46,626 nucleotides of DNA. Source: Armatimonadota bacterium. Its GTDB lineage: Bacteria; Armatimonadota; UBA5829; DTJY01. Position numbers and translations under genes: made by a program. Within the stretch, counting starts at the first letter, position 1. Each line of letters begins with the position of its first letter. The notes beneath the pieces were generated by a model, which saw only the letters and a list, made by a program, of their open reading frames with translations, ran no database searches and was not told where the DNA came from. Where the stretch lies: the NCBI GenBank assembly GCA_025358205.1, contig JANYKG010000074.1, forward strand, positions 1 to 46,626. Reading direction: 5' to 3'. Shown here piece by piece: positions 33,914 through 44,537 of the stretch.

Positions 33914-34627
33914 CTACTCAAAATGCACAAAGAGGCAAAGTGTCTTATAACCACCATGCCTCTTAACTCTATATATGGCTCCCCGAATCGGTTGAGTGGA
34001 CAACATAGAAATGGTGTCACAATCACTGTCAGAGCAAGGTGCGATCCACGAACAAGCCGTGGCGCACCAGCTGACTGACAATCTCTGGACTGACTTAGAC
34101 AACTGGCGATACCGGGCTGGGAGCGAAAACGTACAGCCAACCCCCCGATAAGCACCTGGGCCGATACCTCTCCTAGACTGACTACACCTCACCGAACGGA
34201 TGAACGTGGTCCTCTCGGCATCCGTATACCGAAAAAGCGAATCTCGAATCGCCTCACTCAATCCGCCGAAGCCGATTCTGAGTAGCGTCGGATAGTCCGG
34301 CGCATGGTGGTCTGCGTGCTCGCAGAACCCGCGTGAGCCAATCGTCTGCAGAAACTGAGAATCTCGCGACTGCTCCTCCAGATCGTACTCAGGCCCGAGA
34401 CGGTGAAATTTCCCGCAGCCGACGATCAGTTCCCCAGGCCAGACAGGGAGTTCGCACTGGGTGAGGACGGCATTCAGCGCCTTCGCCCTGCGAATTGTCA
34501 TCGGCTCCCCATCGGTCGCTCGGAACGACTCCGCGCGCCAGTGGGTAGATATCAGGTGCGGGTTCTCGCGGATGTACCCGCCAACCCGCTTCGTTAGCTC
34601 CTGATGTGGTATGGCCTCAGTCTGCAT
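33914..34627 (-). pseudogene. Truncated glycyl-radical enzyme (pyruvate formate-lyase family) remnant
   Basis: Only the N-terminal part is recognisable. RAKALNAVLTQCELPVWPGELIVGCG, HADHHAPDYPTLLRIGFGGL and the following helix match the start of glycyl-radical enzymes (usually about 800 residues). After about residue 145 (TTFIRSV) the sequence turns into Cys/Ser/Arg-rich, non-family sequence until a stop. The catalytic Cys, Glu and the C-terminal glycyl-radical loop are absent, and no activase gene is seen. The ATG overlaps the end of the upstream dehydrogenase remnant by 11 bases, showing that the two once formed an operon. It converges with the heparinase-like gene. Confidence 0.75.
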
Positions 34628-35356
34628 GGAATACCGCCTTCACGGATTCTCCACTGCTTGCCGCTCTGCATGCCTCATTTGCCTCGGAGATCGAGTATCT
34701 GTGTGTGATGCACGCCGCCATCCTGTCCTGCAGTTCGCTATGCTGCGTGAGGAAGTCGAGATAGGCCGAGATGTCGGATATCTTGTACTGGCCGCTGCCA
34801 ACGATCTTGATCGCCTTGAAGGTGATAATCTGCGGCTCGATTTCGACTGATCCGCTGTTGGAGTACTGGCCCGGAACGATGTATCGGCCCAGAGTCCTGA
34901 CCATCTGCATGCCCTCTGGTATGGCGGATGGTGAGCCGCTTGCCTCCAAGACGACATCCGCGCCGTCTCCGCGCCTCATCTCCCTGGCAAGATCTCTGAC
35001 CACCGCCAGTCGTTCGTCAGGCGTGGTCTCTCGATAGTCCATGACCAAATCTGCTCCCAGGCCTCGCGCCAGTTCCATCCTCGCCTTGTTCTTCCCTGAT
35101 CCGATCACCACGACGCGGCATCCGTTCGCGCGTTCGGCCCCGTCTCGATCACTCGCCCGATGAACTCATGCCCAGGGATGAACTGAGGTGGGATCGGCAG
35201 GCTGCCCTCAAGGATGTGAATGTCCGTCCCGCAGATTCCGCTGTGGACCAGTTGCATCAGGACACCTGCATCGTCCGGCGATACGACTGGATACTCTCGG
35301 ATCTCCATCGGCCTAGCTGGCCCGACGAAGACAGCGGCCTTGCCTTTTCTAATCAT
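34617..35356 (-). pseudogene. Zinc-dependent alcohol dehydrogenase with internal deletion and frameshift
   Basis: Two open pieces in different frames give the two ends of one medium-chain dehydrogenase. The N-piece (MIRKGKAAVFVG to IGRVIETGPNAR) has the catalytic-zinc GICGTD and GHE motifs. The C-piece (RVVVIGSGKNKARMELARGLGADLV to the end) has the second half of the Rossmann fold. They join at about 35108-35125. Roughly 100 residues are missing, including the four-Cys structural-zinc lobe and the GxGxxG loop, and the frame changes at the junction. The product cannot be a working dehydrogenase. Relatives oxidise sugar alcohols or amino-acid alcohols such as threonine. Confidence 0.85.
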
Positions 35357-37353: not shown

Positions 37354-38808
37354 ATGCATAATAAGCTGAAACTGGGGTTCGTCCCGGCAAACAGGCGCTA
37401 TTTTTCAACTGAACTGGCGAACAAGATGAAAGCTGAGGCCATCGCCCAGATGGTGAAGCTGGGCATCGAGGTTGTCACGCCGGATGATACTATGACCGAG
37501 GCGGGGCTTGTGAAGAATCGCGACGAGGGCAAGATCTGTGCTGATCTGTTCAAGCGAGCGGGCGTGGACGGCGTCATCATCGGTGCGACGAACTTTGGCG
37601 ATGAGCAGGGATGTATGAATGCGGTCATGGGTACCGAGTCGCACATTCCGGTCATGATCTTCGGCTGTCAGGAGGAAGAGCCTCTCAAGCTCGGACGCCC
37701 CCGACGCGACTCGTTCTGCGGGCTGCTGTCTATCGCCGAAGGCCTGCGCCAGATCGGACGGAAGTACACCATTGCGCGTGAGCCTATCTGCTTCCCGCGT
37801 GATGACAGCTTCTTTGCTGATCTCGACCAGTTTGCGCGTGTATGCCGTGTCCTGAAGGGCATTCGCGGTATGCGCATCGGTCAGATAGGCACCCGACCCG
37901 ATGCGTTCTGGACTTGCCGCTACGATGAGAAGATGCTCCAACAGATCGGCGTCACGGTTGTGCCGAAGGACCTGTCGGAACTGCTGGCGATGGTTGGCAA
38001 ACTGAACGACGACGATGCCATCGTGCTGGAGAAGGTCCAGAGCCTGAAGGCCGAGACGGACACATCGTCCGTGTCGCCGGAAATCCTGACGCGTATCGCT
38101 CGGTTCGAGTGCGGGCTGGAGGAGATGATACGGACCTTCGAGATGGATGCGGTTGCGATTCAGTGCTGGAACTCGCTCCAGCTCAATTACGGTATCGTCG
38201 CCTGCGGGGTACTCGCCCGGCTTGGAGATCGAGGCATTCCGGTGGCTTGCGAGGCGGATGTGCTAGGCGCGCTTTCGATGCAGGCGCTCAGGCTGGCGGC
38301 GGACTCCCCGGCGGCGCTGCTGGACTGGAACAACCTGCACAACGACGACGCCGAACTGGCAAACCTATGGCACTGCGGTGTCTACCCGCCGTCTTTCAGT
38401 TGTGACAAGCCTCGGTTGGCGCCACAGGGTATCATGAGCAAGCACATCGGCGCGGAGATATCCACAGGGGCGATGGAGTTGAAGGTCAAACCCGGAGACG
38501 CTACTCTCTGCCGCGTGACCCAGGGGCTTCCCGGCGAAGGCTGGAAGGTCTTCATCGGCGAGGGAGCGTTTGAGGAAAACGAGGCGACGACTTTCGGCGC
38601 GGGCGGATGGTGTCGCATTCCCGGCCTGCCACAAATCTACCGAGAGATTCTGCTGGACGGCTTCACGCATCACATCGCCGTCACCCAGGCACATGTCGGG
38701 AACGCGCTTTATGAGCTATTCGGCAACTACCTCGGCATGGCGGTCTATCACGGCGGGCAATCTGCGCCCGGCACATACTCGCGTGCGCTGCCGTTTGAGG
38801 CCTTATGA
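37354..38808 (+). CDS. L-fucose/L-arabinose isomerase-like protein
   Basis: A 484-residue protein with the fold of the L-fucose isomerase/L-arabinose isomerase superfamily. It has an N-terminal alpha/beta part (KLGFVPANRRYFSTELANKM, GVDGVIIGATNFGDEQG), a middle block RIGQIGTRPDAFWTCRYDEKM, and a C-terminal QCWNSLQLNYGIVACGVLARLGDRGIPVACEADV. The Glu and Asp of CEADVLGAL and the His of LDWNNLHNDD are good metal-ligand candidates. Such enzymes convert aldoses to ketoses with Mn2+, but many divergent members are uncharacterised. GGAGG lies 9 nt upstream of the ATG. It is the first gene before the small membrane peptide and SSS symporter, suggesting import-linked sugar catabolism. Confidence 0.83.
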   Translation: MHNKLKLGFVPANRRYFSTELANKMKAEAIAQMVKLGIEVVTPDDTMTEAGLVKNRDEGKICADLFKRAGVDGVIIGATNFGDEQGCMNAVMGTESHIPVMIFGCQEEEPLKLGRPRRDSFCGLLSIAEGLRQIGRKYTIAREPICFPRDDSFFADLDQFARVCRVLKGIRGMRIGQIGTRPDAFWTCRYDEKMLQQIGVTVVPKDLSELLAMVGKLNDDDAIVLEKVQSLKAETDTSSVSPEILTRIARFECGLEEMIRTFEMDAVAIQCWNSLQLNYGIVACGVLARLGDRGIPVACEADVLGALSMQALRLAADSPAALLDWNNLHNDDAELANLWHCGVYPPSFSCDKPRLAPQGIMSKHIGAEISTGAMELKVKPGDATLCRVTQGLPGEGWKVFIGEGAFEENEATTFGAGGWCRIPGLPQIYREILLDGFTHHIAVTQAHVGNALYELFGNYLGMAVYHGGQSAPGTYSRALPFEAL

Positions 38809-38814
38809 TCGTTG

Positions 38815-38900
38815 TGGACTACAGAAGGCAGACCACAGGCTGCAGCAGGGGACGCCCGTCCGACTCTGCGGTCTGTAGTCTCAAGTCTGTGGTCTTCTCC
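38815..38900. repeat. Inverted repeat of the 'ctgtagtc/ctgtggtct' family
   Basis: GACTACAG (38817-38824) pairs with CTGTAGTC (38873-38880). AGACCACAG (38830-38838) matches CTGTGGTCT (38887-38895) inverted. The element fills the space between the isomerase-like gene and the 45-codon gene. Confidence 0.6.
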
Positions 38901-38920
38901 ATCGAAAGGAGATGTAACTA

Positions 38921-39058
38921 ATGCAAGGATTTGATTGGATGCTCTGGGGCGTTGAAGCCTGTGGAATTGTGATCCTATGTATCTGGATCGCAGTTCCCAT
39001 CCGGGAGTTCAAGCAGATCGCCAAACGCCTGAAGGAAAAGGAACACGAGGAGAAGTGA
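38921..39058 (+). CDS. 45-residue single-span membrane peptide upstream of the SSS symporter
   Basis: A short gene with AAAGGAGATG-type ribosome site 8 nt before the ATG. The product has one hydrophobic helix at about residues 8-26 (LWGVEACGIVILCIWIAVP), then a charged helix IREFKQIAKRLKEKEHEEK. It is therefore a bitopic peptide with a basic/acidic cytoplasmic tail. It lies 85 bp upstream of the symporter gene on the same strand. Small subunits that stabilise transporters have this shape. Coding status rests on the ribosome site, the sensible topology and the context; I know no named family for it. Confidence 0.65.
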   Translation: MQGFDWMLWGVEACGIVILCIWIAVPIREFKQIAKRLKEKEHEEK

Positions 39059-39060
39059 CC

Positions 39061-39124
39061 AGTGATCGGTAATCAGTGGATCAGTGCAGAGCTTTTCCCT
39101 ACTGATAACTGATGACTGGTCACT
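39061..39124. repeat. Imperfect 24-bp inverted repeat of the 'atcagt' family
   Basis: The arm 39061-39085 is the near complement of 39101-39124, with a 15-base loop. The sequence is built from agtgatca/atcagt words, the same family as 2331-2373. It lies between the small peptide gene and the symporter ribosome site and may fold in the mRNA. Confidence 0.75.
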
Positions 39125-39143
39125 CTTCCGTGTAGGAGGAGCC

Positions 39144-40916
39144 ATGACCTGGATTGACTACACCATCATCGGCCTGTTTCTAGCCGGGCTTGCAGTAGCC
39201 GGACTGAGGATTTCGAGGCTGATCAAGCACTCGGACGACATCTTCGTCGCCGGTCGAGAACTGACGCCGTTCATCCTCGGCGCGACGATCACCGCCACCA
39301 ACCTGAGCATGTACCACTTCATCTCAATGGGCGGGATCGCGTTTCAGAAGGGCATCTCCATCATCTGGCAGAACTGGACCGGTTGCATGGCGCTCGTACT
39401 CTCGGGCATCTTCGTCATCCCGGTTATGCGACGCCTTCAGGTGCGCTCGATACCAGAGTTCCTGGAGATGCGCTACAGCAAACCGCTCCGCATCATCATC
39501 GGCGCATTCTGGGGGTTAAGGCTCTGCATCTTCCTGGGAATATTCCTGTACATCGCAGCCACTGCAGGCGCACAGATCACCGGCTGGGACAACTACTTCG
39601 GCTGGCTGGCGATCTTCTCGGTCATTGCCATTATGTACTCCGCCATAGGGGGCGCGTGGGCCGTGGCAATCATGGACTCCATGCAGTTCGCCTTCATCAT
39701 CCTCGGCGGATTGATCACACTGCCGGTTGCGATTCACCTGGCTGGCGGAACGCCCTCGCTCATCCACTGGCTGCAGACCCATGGGAAGACCGTCCACACT
39801 CAACTAGTGCCGACGGGAATGGGCGAGTTCAACTGGCTCTTTGTCCTGGCCATTCTGCTCATCTCAACCAAATGGGCGACCGTTGACCAGGCGATTCTGC
39901 AGCGCGCTTTTGGGGCGAAAAACCCTCGAGTCGGCGCGCAGGGTATGGTGCTCTCGGGGTTGATCACCGTGCCGCTTGCGTTCTTGTGGATTCTCCCCGG
40001 CCTGGCGCTGGCGAGGATCAATCCGCCGGGGATTACGAACCCGGACCACGCTATTCCATGGCTACTGGCCACCCATCTCCCGCCTATCGCATCCGGGCTT
40101 CTGGGGCTGGTGCTGTGCGGGCTGGTCGCCGCGCAGGTTTCGACCATCACGGCGGACATTAACTCCGTCGCCACGCTGTTCACCAGTGATGTTTACCAAG
40201 CGCTGAAGAAGAAAGCGCCCACGCAGAAGCAACTCATCTACGTGGCGCGGTTCAGTTCGCTGATTTGCGGCGCGCTCATGATCCTGTTCGCCTGGCTACT
40301 GAGTTTCACGAACTCCGGCGCGGTTCGGGCAAACCTGACAGTTGTTGGCATAGTAGACCTGCCGCTCTTCATCATCACTATCGTCTACGGCCTGGGGTGG
40401 AAGCGCACGACTTGGCAGGGCGCGATGGCCGGTTTCTTCATCGGCGGCGCGGCGGGGATTATGTCGTATATGTTCATCATTCCGAACTACTTCAACCACA
40501 CGACATATCCGTTCCTGAGCGCGATTTCCGGCTCGCTCGCGATGCATGCGGCGGCGTGGCATGAACACATCAAGGTCTACAAGGACTCTATGCTCAGCAT
40601 CGCTCCGTTCGTGAGTTCAGGCGCGGCGCTCCTCATCACGCCGATTGTGAGTCTGCTTACCAAGCCTGGCAAGAACGATCAGTCGCACAAGATATGGGCC
40701 AACTTCCATGTCGGTGATGACACGGAAGATACCTTCCACCTGGTTCCCAGGAGCCGCGCAGGTAAGTTCGGCGTTGGCCTCGTGGTCGCCGGTTTCCTCA
40801 GCTTCCTGATAGGCATAATCTCAGCGGCACACGCCTTCCCGCTGGCGACTGTAATGGCGGTCGGCGGTATGATCGCGTTGTTCATCGGCGGCGTGCTCAG
40901 GGTCTATGTGGAATAG
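39144..40916 (+). CDS. Sodium:solute symporter (SSS family)
   Basis: A 590-residue integral membrane transporter. MTWIDYTIIGLFLAGLAVAGLRIS begins the first helix. The conserved early loop DDIFVAGRELTPFILGATITATNLSMYHFISMGG carries the family's Na+-site helix pattern. Around 13-15 hydrophobic segments follow, including the GLIxxPLAFLWILPGLAL and VSTITADINSVATLFTSDVY blocks, the latter close to the SSS signature region with a second Na+ site. GGAGGA lies 3-8 nt before the chosen ATG; an in-frame start 60 bp earlier lies in the repeat. The sugar-like substrate is inferred from the adjacent isomerase-like and GH42-like genes. Confidence 0.9.
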   Translation: MTWIDYTIIGLFLAGLAVAGLRISRLIKHSDDIFVAGRELTPFILGATITATNLSMYHFISMGGIAFQKGISIIWQNWTGCMALVLSGIFVIPVMRRLQVRSIPEFLEMRYSKPLRIIIGAFWGLRLCIFLGIFLYIAATAGAQITGWDNYFGWLAIFSVIAIMYSAIGGAWAVAIMDSMQFAFIILGGLITLPVAIHLAGGTPSLIHWLQTHGKTVHTQLVPTGMGEFNWLFVLAILLISTKWATVDQAILQRAFGAKNPRVGAQGMVLSGLITVPLAFLWILPGLALARINPPGITNPDHAIPWLLATHLPPIASGLLGLVLCGLVAAQVSTITADINSVATLFTSDVYQALKKKAPTQKQLIYVARFSSLICGALMILFAWLLSFTNSGAVRANLTVVGIVDLPLFIITIVYGLGWKRTTWQGAMAGFFIGGAAGIMSYMFIIPNYFNHTTYPFLSAISGSLAMHAAAWHEHIKVYKDSMLSIAPFVSSGAALLITPIVSLLTKPGKNDQSHKIWANFHVGDDTEDTFHLVPRSRAGKFGVGLVVAGFLSFLIGIISAAHAFPLATVMAVGGMIALFIGGVLRVYVE

Positions 40917-42497: not shown

Positions 42498-44528
42498 CTA
42501 CTGCTCAATCTTCACAACCCCGATGCCGTCCTTGCTCAGCGGGATGCCCATGATGATGAGCTTCTCATCCTTCGAGGACACACTCAGCGTCTTGCCCGAA
42601 AGTGGGTCAATCGCCGTAATGCTCTTCATCTTGAGCGCCGATGCATCCAACTCCAGGTCGGCCTTCGACGCATTCCCCTCATCACAGTAGAGACTGAAAT
42701 ACATCACCTTTCCACTGCCGAAACGCTCCGCCAGCACGCCGTCTGTCAGCGGTTTGGCATACGTCACCGGCTCCCAGCCGAGAGGGAACATCTGCCGTTG
42801 AATCGGCAGATAGGTGTCGTAGAGGTCCTTTACCTTCTGGTAGTCCGGTCTGCTGAAATAGACCATATCGGAATCGCCGTAGTTGCCGAAGAGGAAGTTC
42901 CTTGCTATATACTTACGGTCCCTTTCCTCGCCTGCCATGCCGTGCCCCATCGCCATGTACGGTTTGTGGTAGACAAGCGCACGTCGGGCCGCAATGTCTT
43001 CGACCGATGCACCCGGGCCGTACTCCGAGCCTGCCACATCAAGCTTCTGCGCATGGAAGAAGCACCGCTGCCGCACACCGTTCGCCGTGACCTTCCCGTT
43101 CGGCCCGACGATCTTTCGCAGTTCATCCAGGAACGTCAGGTGTTCCAGCGAGTTGTCCAGGCACGGGCGACCGTCATCGCCGTATGTCAGTCCGTACTTC
43201 GCATAGGGAAAGTGATCCTTCCGGTAGCTCACATACGCGCCCCACCGATATAGCGAGTCCACGTAGATGCCGTCCCAGTTCCCGCTCTTCAGCCATTCCC
43301 TGCAGTCGTTGAGGATTGACATGCCCGCGTTCAAGCCCTTCTCTCCGCCGGGGATGAACGGGTTCGGGTTCACTGGGAATGTGACCGTCTTGTCCGACCA
43401 CTGACAGATGCGCGGTCTGGTGATGACCACCCCGTCCGGCCCGGTCAGGTAGCTGTTCTTCACCGTCTGGATGTAATCGGGGACCGGCATGATGTTCTGC
43501 GAGATGGTGATGTTCTTCTCGGTCATGTGTTCCAGCAGGTCGAACGCCTCGGCGTTCGTGTAGGTCACCTTGGTCAGATCCAGGGCGTCATCCTTCTCGT
43601 CCATCGTCTTGAGCTTGGCGGTCGCCTCGCCCTTCAGGTTGTCCAGGAAGCCGACCTCGCGCTGACCGGGGATGACATACGGGTATATCTCGATGCCCCA
43701 GGCCTTCTCCTGCTTGATCTCCTGCGGCGTCATGATATCAATCGCCTTCTTACCTGCGTGGCGGCACTCGCCGAGTTCGCCGAGCGAGTGGAAGGAGAAC
43801 TGCGTCGGGTTCGGCGCGGTCGTCGCCTTGCCCTTGAAGATCCACAGGCCGTTCACCTTGGAGTGTCCCTCATACGCCTTCGGGAAGAGGTCGTAGTACC
43901 GCTTCAGTGCCGAGCGGAATCCCCACGCGCCGTCAACCGGGTACACGGCAAAGGATATCCTCGCGTGTGATTTCGGATTCGTTGCGTCGGAGAAGCCGAC
44001 TTTCGCATAGACGAAGAGGCCTATGTTCTTGTCATAGCCCGACTGGAAGATGCAAGGTGTCTCTGGGGTGATCGCCACGGCGAGGCCCGCGCCGGTCTTC
44101 GGGTTCGTCAGCACAGAGATGGGGATCAGGTCCTGGCTACCGCCGGCCCTCGCCGATAAGCTGGTCAAAGGTCCGCTGTGCCACACCCAGCCCGCGATGT
44201 CCAGGGGTATCTGGTACTGCACGTCCGCCGCTGAGTCGCCGCCCTTCTTGTCGGTGATATCCGCCGTCACGAGTAGCGCATCATCCTTGCGTTTTGTAGT
44301 TACCTTCACGTCAAAGCGTTCGGGGTTCGGGCTTCGCACCAGCCTGCTGCCGACCCATGTGACCTCTTCCACCCGCACGCCGGTCTGAACGCCAGGCATG
44401 AAAGCGAGAGGCTTCCCGCCGATCAAGATGTCTGACAAACCTGCGGTATTTACATCCATCTTGTACTCCCATCCAGCCTGAGCGCCGACGGCCGCCAGAA
44501 TCATGAAAAGGGCAACAATGTATCGCAT
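42498..44528 (-). CDS. Secreted putative glycosidase of unassigned family
   Basis: A 676-residue exported protein. The signal peptide RYIVALFMILAAVGAQA is followed by a beta-sandwich (residues about 20-230), then a region that reads as a TIM barrel. NWDGIYVDSLYRWGAYVS is a strand ending in an Asp, as in GH31/GH36-like retaining glycosidases. VAGSEYGPGAS and MAMGHGMAGEERD follow, with a C-terminal beta-domain. I cannot place it in a numbered GH family. AGGAG lies 6 nt before the second ATG, inside the end of the upstream GH2 gene, so translation is probably coupled to it. The barrel assignment and catalytic Asp are inferences. Confidence 0.7.
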   Translation of the reverse strand: MRYIVALFMILAAVGAQAGWEYKMDVNTAGLSDILIGGKPLAFMPGVQTGVRVEEVTWVGSRLVRSPNPERFDVKVTTKRKDDALLVTADITDKKGGDSAADVQYQIPLDIAGWVWHSGPLTSLSARAGGSQDLIPISVLTNPKTGAGLAVAITPETPCIFQSGYDKNIGLFVYAKVGFSDATNPKSHARISFAVYPVDGAWGFRSALKRYYDLFPKAYEGHSKVNGLWIFKGKATTAPNPTQFSFHSLGELGECRHAGKKAIDIMTPQEIKQEKAWGIEIYPYVIPGQREVGFLDNLKGEATAKLKTMDEKDDALDLTKVTYTNAEAFDLLEHMTEKNITISQNIMPVPDYIQTVKNSYLTGPDGVVITRPRICQWSDKTVTFPVNPNPFIPGGEKGLNAGMSILNDCREWLKSGNWDGIYVDSLYRWGAYVSYRKDHFPYAKYGLTYGDDGRPCLDNSLEHLTFLDELRKIVGPNGKVTANGVRQRCFFHAQKLDVAGSEYGPGASVEDIAARRALVYHKPYMAMGHGMAGEERDRKYIARNFLFGNYGDSDMVYFSRPDYQKVKDLYDTYLPIQRQMFPLGWEPVTYAKPLTDGVLAERFGSGKVMYFSLYCDEGNASKADLELDASALKMKSITAIDPLSGKTLSVSSKDEKLIIMGIPLSKDGIGVVKIEQ

Positions 44529-44537
44529 GAGCATCTC

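What the first reader, a model, noticed from the sequence alone, without database searches (positions are those of the whole stretch)
38921..39058. Unannotated-size membrane peptide preceding an SSS symporter
The 45-codon gene has a good ribosome site and a typical bitopic topology, and lies directly before the symporter. It may be a small regulatory or assembly subunit missed by length cut-offs.
Basis: partly seen in the sequence, partly recalled or inferred. Interest (0 to 1): 0.5.

Follow-up and report, generated by a model that had tools for sequence, protein, structure and literature searches.

The report
Tiny helper helix for sugar symporter
A real, overlooked 45-residue membrane peptide gene sits beside a sodium-driven uptake transporter and stays beside its relatives in another bacterial phylum even when the gene order is swapped, so it is most likely a small partner subunit of that transporter.

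Summary
The 45-codon ORF at 38921-39058 is a genuine gene. Homologues lie next to relatives of the same SSS symporter in 8 loci: directly upstream in 6 (the window, three genomes of its family, two Phycisphaerae) and directly downstream in 2 more Planctomycetota genomes. The swapped order speaks strongly against a leader peptide and points to a protein partner of the symporter. Substitutions are strongly synonymous (18 on 23 synonymous sites, 7 on 85 nonsynonymous, against the nearest homologue). The peptide is predicted to be one helix, N-terminus outside, basic C-tail inside. Residues G15, I18, W22, P26 and E29, invariant in all eight, fall on one helix face. It matches no Pfam or NCBIfam family at a usable score. 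It is not detectably related to NCBIfam's 'symporter small accessory protein' (NF045580), which sits beside other SSS genes in the same phylum. I conclude that it is a new family of single-helix SSS accessory subunits. Assembly or stabilisation of the symporter is the likeliest role, activity regulation next. Physical interaction is untested. One symporter of the subfamily, a paralogue in the window's own genome, has no peptide beside it.

The parts
38905..38911 (+). Shine-Dalgarno AAAGGAG of the peptide gene, 9 nt before the ATG
   Evidence: sequence; clear SD in 7 of 8 homologous loci
38921..39058 (+). 45-aa single-helix membrane peptide gene, proposed SSS accessory subunit
38939..38995 (+). 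codons for the most hydrophobic 19-residue stretch (residues 7-25), the core of the predicted membrane helix
   Evidence: AlphaFold2 helix 2-44
39134..39141 (+). Shine-Dalgarno AGGAGGAG of the symporter
   Evidence: sequence
39144..40916 (+). sodium/solute symporter (SSS, TIGR00813, Pfam SSF), 590 aa
37354..38808 (+). Fucose-isomerase-fold protein, upstream neighbour of the peptide in 4 of the 8 peptide loci (the window and the three same-family genomes)
   Evidence: Pfam Fucose_iso_C; orthologues in G002, G003, G004; best NCBIfam match sulfoquinovose isomerase at 129.6 bits, far under its cut-off of 700
38816..38895 (+). hairpin-forming intergenic palindrome; fragments recur elsewhere in the genome; not taken as part of the conserved unit
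39056..39122 (+). hairpin-forming palindrome between peptide and symporter; fragments recur elsewhere in the genome; the five other upstream-type junctions leave no room for it

Best explanation
The ORF encodes a dedicated single-helix accessory subunit of this SSS symporter subfamily. Shown: it is a protein-coding gene under purifying selection, and it stays next to the symporter gene in genomes of two phyla and through a change of gene order. Predicted: one helix crosses the membrane with the short N-terminus outside and the basic tail inside. Inferred: the helix packs on an outer helix of the symporter through the conserved face G15-I18-W22-P26-E29. It is made from the same message, and its main effect is to help the symporter fold, assemble or stay stable in the membrane, much as the unrelated single-helix protein MAP17 does for human SGLT2. 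Tuning of transport activity is possible as well.
For: Homologues lie directly upstream of symporter orthologues in G002, G003, G004, G291 and G292, and directly downstream of 36-44%-identical symporters in G717 and G776. That is 8 of 8 high-scoring peptide loci adjacent to a symporter of one subfamily, a clade with 100/100 support. Window vs G003: 18 synonymous changes on 23 sites, 7 nonsynonymous on 85, Fisher p 8e-11. In G003, G291 and G292 the two genes overlap by 14, 4 and 4 nt, which suggests translational coupling. Of 61 relatives, the 4 with a strong peptide match are the same 4 with a close symporter. Of 26 genomes of G292's order, 2 have the symporter at E up to 1e-60 and both have the peptide. 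Residues invariant in all eight between positions 8 and 30 lie on one helix face (mean resultant 0.88, p 0.0025 against random positions; with D5 added 0.73, p 0.018). Single helix and basic tail.
Against: A 51%-identical paralogue in the window's own genome (C62) has no peptide in the 562 nt held upstream or 1.5 kb downstream, so the subunit is not needed by every member unless it borrows the window's copy. In G717 and G776 the peptide gene also overlaps a following HD-domain gene (by 11 and 4 nt), so there its coupling is not to the symporter alone. No interaction, expression or activity data exist. The conserved-face test rests on 8 related sequences and on a stretch I chose. The AlphaFold model of the symporter was too poor to dock on (pLDDT 45.8). 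Symporters of the subfamily without a peptide were not counted in the wider phylum sample.
Confidence: 0.7

Rival explanations
1. The peptide is a regulator of the mature symporter: it inhibits or gates transport, or directs the symporter to a protease, like MgtR, MgtS or AcrZ-type small proteins with their transporters.
For: Small regulators of bacterial transporters are well documented (passages of PMC10710835). A partner helix with a conserved face fits equally well.
Against: It is encoded beside the symporter and in three loci overlaps it, so it would be made whenever the symporter is. That suits a stoichiometric subunit better than a switch (inference).
Confidence: 0.2
2. It is a leader peptide or upstream ORF that sets translation of the symporter, and its sequence matters only in cis.
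For: It sits just upstream in 6 loci, overlaps the symporter in 3, and in the window a strong hairpin lies between the two genes.
Against: In G717 and G776 the peptide gene follows the symporter. Amino acids, not bases, are conserved. The other junctions leave no room for the hairpin and its pieces recur elsewhere in the genome.
Confidence: 0.03
3. A small membrane protein with an unrelated job that merely travels in the same operons.
For: Only 8 loci are known, neighbours of operons can persist by co-transfer, and in G717 and G776 the peptide also overlaps an HD-domain gene.
Against: The other neighbours change (isomerase-like gene upstream in the window's family, ROK regulator next to the G292 pair, HD-domain gene after the peptide in G717 and G776), while the symporter is the constant partner, even with order swapped.
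Confidence: 0.07

Closest known systems
NCBIfam NF045580, symporter small accessory protein (symport_access)
   Same: Short single-helix ORF directly upstream of an SSS gene; 3 of 291 genomes of the window's phylum have one over cut-off, each followed by a Pfam SSF frame.
   Different: No match of this family's peptides to the model and none in the window's genome; profile comparison gives 0.2% probability, while the two halves of the present family give 98.5%; two of the three NF045580 tails there are acidic, this one is basic.
MAP17 (PDZK1IP1), auxiliary subunit of human SGLT2
   Same: One membrane helix beside an SSS/SLC5 transporter; MAP17 packs on TM13, and SGLT2 is less heat-stable without it (passages of PMC10803289).
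   Different: Eukaryotic, not encoded beside the transporter (recalled); the peptide profile lists no SGLT2-MAP17 chain of the PDB at E up to 10.
AcrZ, MgtS, MgtR, SgrT and similar bacterial small transporter regulators
   Same: Very short proteins that act on one transporter (passages of PMC10710835).
   Different: They act on other transporter families; that they are mostly encoded away from their target and induced by stress is recalled.
Small partners of other SSS genes (DUF485 with ActP, DUF4212, DUF3311, YhdT with PanF; pairing and layout recalled)
   Same: Small membrane ORFs paired with SSS genes (one passage of PMC5715377 names a DUF485 protein and ActP in one regulon).
   Different: Larger (recalled); none of these Pfam families is hit by the 6 peptides scanned or the 2.

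Membership tests
NF045580 symporter small accessory protein | score over the curated cut-off of 35 bits | tested here: not met
   no hit for the window peptide, none in the window's genome at E up to 10, none of 6 members, neither of the 2 downstream-type peptides
NF045580 symporter small accessory protein | detectable profile similarity | tested here: not met
   hhalign 0.2% over 5 columns, 6 against 3 sequences; positive control within the new family 98.5%
NF045580 symporter small accessory protein | encoded beside an SSS gene | tested here: met
   8 of 8 loci; shared context, not shared descent
SSS family (for the neighbouring protein 39144-40916) | TIGR00813 and Pfam SSF over cut-off | tested here: met
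   192.8 bits vs 184 and 141.3 bits vs 22.8; vSGLT is the best PDB match, E 8e-37
MAP17 | sequence homology | tested here: not met
   profile A1 against all PDB chains at E up to 10 lists no SGLT2-MAP17 chain; MAP17 itself was not compared one to one
MAP17-like function | binds and stabilises its SSS transporter | not testable with these tools
   needs co-purification and a deletion
Leader peptide / attenuator | must lie upstream in cis | tested here: not met
   downstream of the symporter in G717 and G776

The most novel reading that the evidence does not exclude
A bacterial counterpart of the SGLT2-MAP17 pair, arisen independently: an SSS subfamily found in two phyla that depends on a co-encoded one-helix subunit docked through a conserved G-x2-I-x3-W-x3-P-x2-E face. 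A second, unrelated one-helix family (NF045580) serves other SSS transporters in the same phylum, so SSS transporters have recruited single-helix partners repeatedly.
Probability: 0.4. Interest if true: 0.65.

Novelty: new variant of a known kind. Interest (0 to 1): 0.45.

Why it matters
Bacterial SSS transporters are generally treated as acting alone (my reading): the text of one review of the prokaryotic ones (PMC7918813) does not contain subunit, accessory, small protein, MAP17, YhdT or MctB. A second, unrelated family of one-helix partners suggests that helper helices are a recurrent, under-annotated feature of the family. If true, such transporters should be expressed together with their peptide, and the pair gives a small, testable bacterial system for a question raised by SGLT2-MAP17.

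Tried and rejected
Chance ORF: rejected by conservation and synonymous bias. Leader peptide: rejected by the downstream homologues. Conserved regulatory hairpin between the genes: the two palindromes fold well (z -5.6 and -4.9), but short pieces recur elsewhere in the genome (3 matches for the upstream one and 6 for the other, each including itself), and the other five upstream-type junctions are overlaps or 36-nt gaps without room for it. Membership in NF045580: rejected. Weak Pfam matches of two members to SxtJ (best E 0.0068, 17.6 bits against a cut-off of 24.4) and single weak matches of the G776 peptide were taken as chance.

Weak profile hits dropped before counting: G024 (2 places), G447 and G675. 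One G024 place overlaps a multihaem-cytochrome-like frame and the other is antisense to a long frame (by eye). tblastn with the seven symporters of A3 finds none in any of the four stretches, while both control loci are hit. Of 28 distant SSS matches, 25 were fetched; none carries the peptide by profile in the fetched stretches. Three of them (L024, L031, L033) were scanned for upstream ORFs in the wrong orientation; one search repeated them correctly, without a membrane ORF. Two others show weakly hydrophobic upstream ORFs (L029, L034) that lack the motif. Plasmids held no symporter relative at E 1e-40 and no credible peptide. IMG/VR viral contigs had none. AlphaFold of the symporter with 7 sequences was unusable, so no fold search was run.

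Symporters without a peptide were not counted in the phylum sample, and other phyla were not searched, apart from the one genome-contig scan, which finds only close relatives of the symporter.

Full report
What is there. The ORF 38921-39058 codes for MQGFDWMLWGVEACGIVILCIWIAVPIREFKQIAKRLKEKEHEEK. Its ribosome site AAAGGAG is 9 nt upstream. It lies 112 nt after a fucose-isomerase-fold gene (37354-38808, Pfam Fucose_iso_C) and 85 nt before the ATG of a 590-residue SSS symporter (39144-40916; TIGR00813 192.8 bits against a cut-off of 184). The nearest solved structures by sequence are vSGLT and then the SGLT group. In the window, 3 of 280 ORFs of 35-70 codons have a membrane-helix-like stretch, and this is the only one of them with a ribosome site.

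It is a gene. In the genomes nearest the window the peptide is found in G002, G003 and G004 at 71-79% identity, each time at the symporter orthologue. Against G003 there are 18 synonymous changes on 23 synonymous sites and 7 nonsynonymous on 85 (Fisher p 8e-11). For the close pair G002-G004 it is 5 against 1. Two Phycisphaerae loci with 54-55%-identical symporters, L003 (genome G291) and L004 (G292), carry it too. There it overlaps the symporter start by 4 nt, and in G003 by 14 nt.

The order can be swapped. A profile of these six peptides, run on 392 genomes drawn from G292's phylum, gave 3 genomes at E up to 0.001: G292 itself and two new ones, G717 (E 4e-9) and G776 (E 5e-8). In both, the peptide gene follows an SSS symporter (TIGR00813 over cut-off) that is 36-44% identical to the seven others. 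The G776 peptide starts 12 nt after the symporter's stop; the G717 one starts 6 nt after it by the listed TTG, or 12 nt by the next ATG, which has the better ribosome-site spacing. Each then overlaps an HD-domain gene, by 11 nt in G717 and 4 nt in G776. So 8 of 8 high-scoring peptide loci adjoin a symporter of one subfamily, upstream in 6 and downstream in 2. The nine symporters of that subfamily (these 8 and C62) form one clade (100/100) among the 20 rows used, in which the upstream group (95/99) and the downstream group (99/97) are each supported.

Distribution. Of 291 genomes of the window's phylum, 5 have a match at E up to 0.01; 4 are convincing and the fifth, G024, was dropped after inspection. 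Of 397 genomes of G292's class, 4 have a match; 2 are convincing and 2 were dropped. Of 61 relatives, the 4 with a close symporter are the 4 with the peptide. Of 26 genomes of G292's order, only G291 and G292 have a symporter at E up to 1e-60, and both have the peptide. Of 28 distant SSS matches in the relatives, the 25 fetched carry no such peptide by profile. The exception inside the subfamily is a 51%-identical paralogue in the window's own genome, C62, with no peptide in the 562 nt held upstream or in 1.5 kb downstream. Either that symporter does without it or it shares the window's copy; neither was tested.

Anatomy. The eight peptides align without gaps over 34 residues. The invariant residues are D5, G15, I18, W22, P26 and E29; E12, invariant in the first six, is not kept in the two downstream ones. 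The most hydrophobic 19 residues are 7-25, with one acidic charge before and a tail of six basic and six... acidic and basic residues after, in which the first half is mainly basic. By the positive-inside rule this suggests N-terminus out and C-terminus in (inference). AlphaFold2 with six sequences gives one helix, 2-44, at mean pLDDT 84.6. The five invariant residues between positions 8 and 30 lie within 80 degrees of each other on a helical wheel (angles; resultant 0.88, p 0.0025 against random positions; with D5 added 0.73, p 0.018). The earlier test on the eleven residues invariant in six sequences gave 0.53, p 0.0075. That pattern is expected of a helix that packs on a partner, though the sequences are few and related.

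Mechanism. The best reading is a helper helix that binds the symporter and supports its assembly or stability. The linkage, the overlap of genes and the conserved face point to it; docking and effect are inferred. The closest working analogue is MAP17, whose single helix sits on TM13 of SGLT2 and whose absence lowers thermal stability; the same paper argues against a direct effect on activity (passages of PMC10803289). A regulator of activity or turnover, of the kind reviewed in PMC10710835 (passages), is the main rival. The substrate is unknown. The isomerase-like neighbour's best NCBIfam match is sulfoquinovose isomerase at 129.6 bits, far below its cut-off of 700, so only 'some sugar' can be proposed.

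Known or new. The eight peptides hit no Pfam or NCBIfam family at a usable score. NCBIfam does hold a 'symporter small accessory protein', NF045580. Three of 291 genomes of the phylum have it over cut-off, and in each it precedes a Pfam SSF frame. The two families show no similarity (0.2%), where the control within the new family gives 98.5%. In the searched library no paper holds the phrase 'symporter small accessory protein', and the searches list no paper that, by its title, treats a one-helix SSS subunit in bacteria; those listed were not read except PMC10803289 in passages. This is therefore, as far as these searches go, a new, unrelated family of an existing kind.

Noticed in passing
38816-38895 and 39056-39122: Two strong palindromes flank the peptide gene; short pieces of each recur at a few other places of the genome, like a dispersed repeat.
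   Followed up: partly
G000 contig C62, locus L083 13556-15283 (-): A paralogous symporter of the same subfamily without an adjacent peptide in the window's own genome.
   Followed up: yes
L084, L085, L086 near 1501: NF045580 peptides precede Pfam SSF frames in three genomes of the phylum, a second one-helix family with the same layout.
   Followed up: partly
L101 5128-5679 (+) and L102 1686-2237 (-): A conserved HD-domain gene (Pfam HD) follows and overlaps the peptide gene in both genomes with the swapped order.
   Followed up: partly
37354-38808: Fucose-isomerase-fold protein, conserved upstream of the peptide in the window's family; weakly nearest to sulfoquinovose isomerase, so its sugar may be unusual.
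   Followed up: partly
42498-44534 (-): 678-residue protein with no Pfam match at E up to 1 and no NCBIfam match at E up to 0.001; a homologue, cut by the stretch fetched, lies near the G003 locus (58% over 218 residues).
   Followed up: no
33914-35111 (-): Piece that reads like the C-terminal part of a zinc alcohol dehydrogenase beside another short frame (by eye); possibly gene remnants.
   Followed up: no
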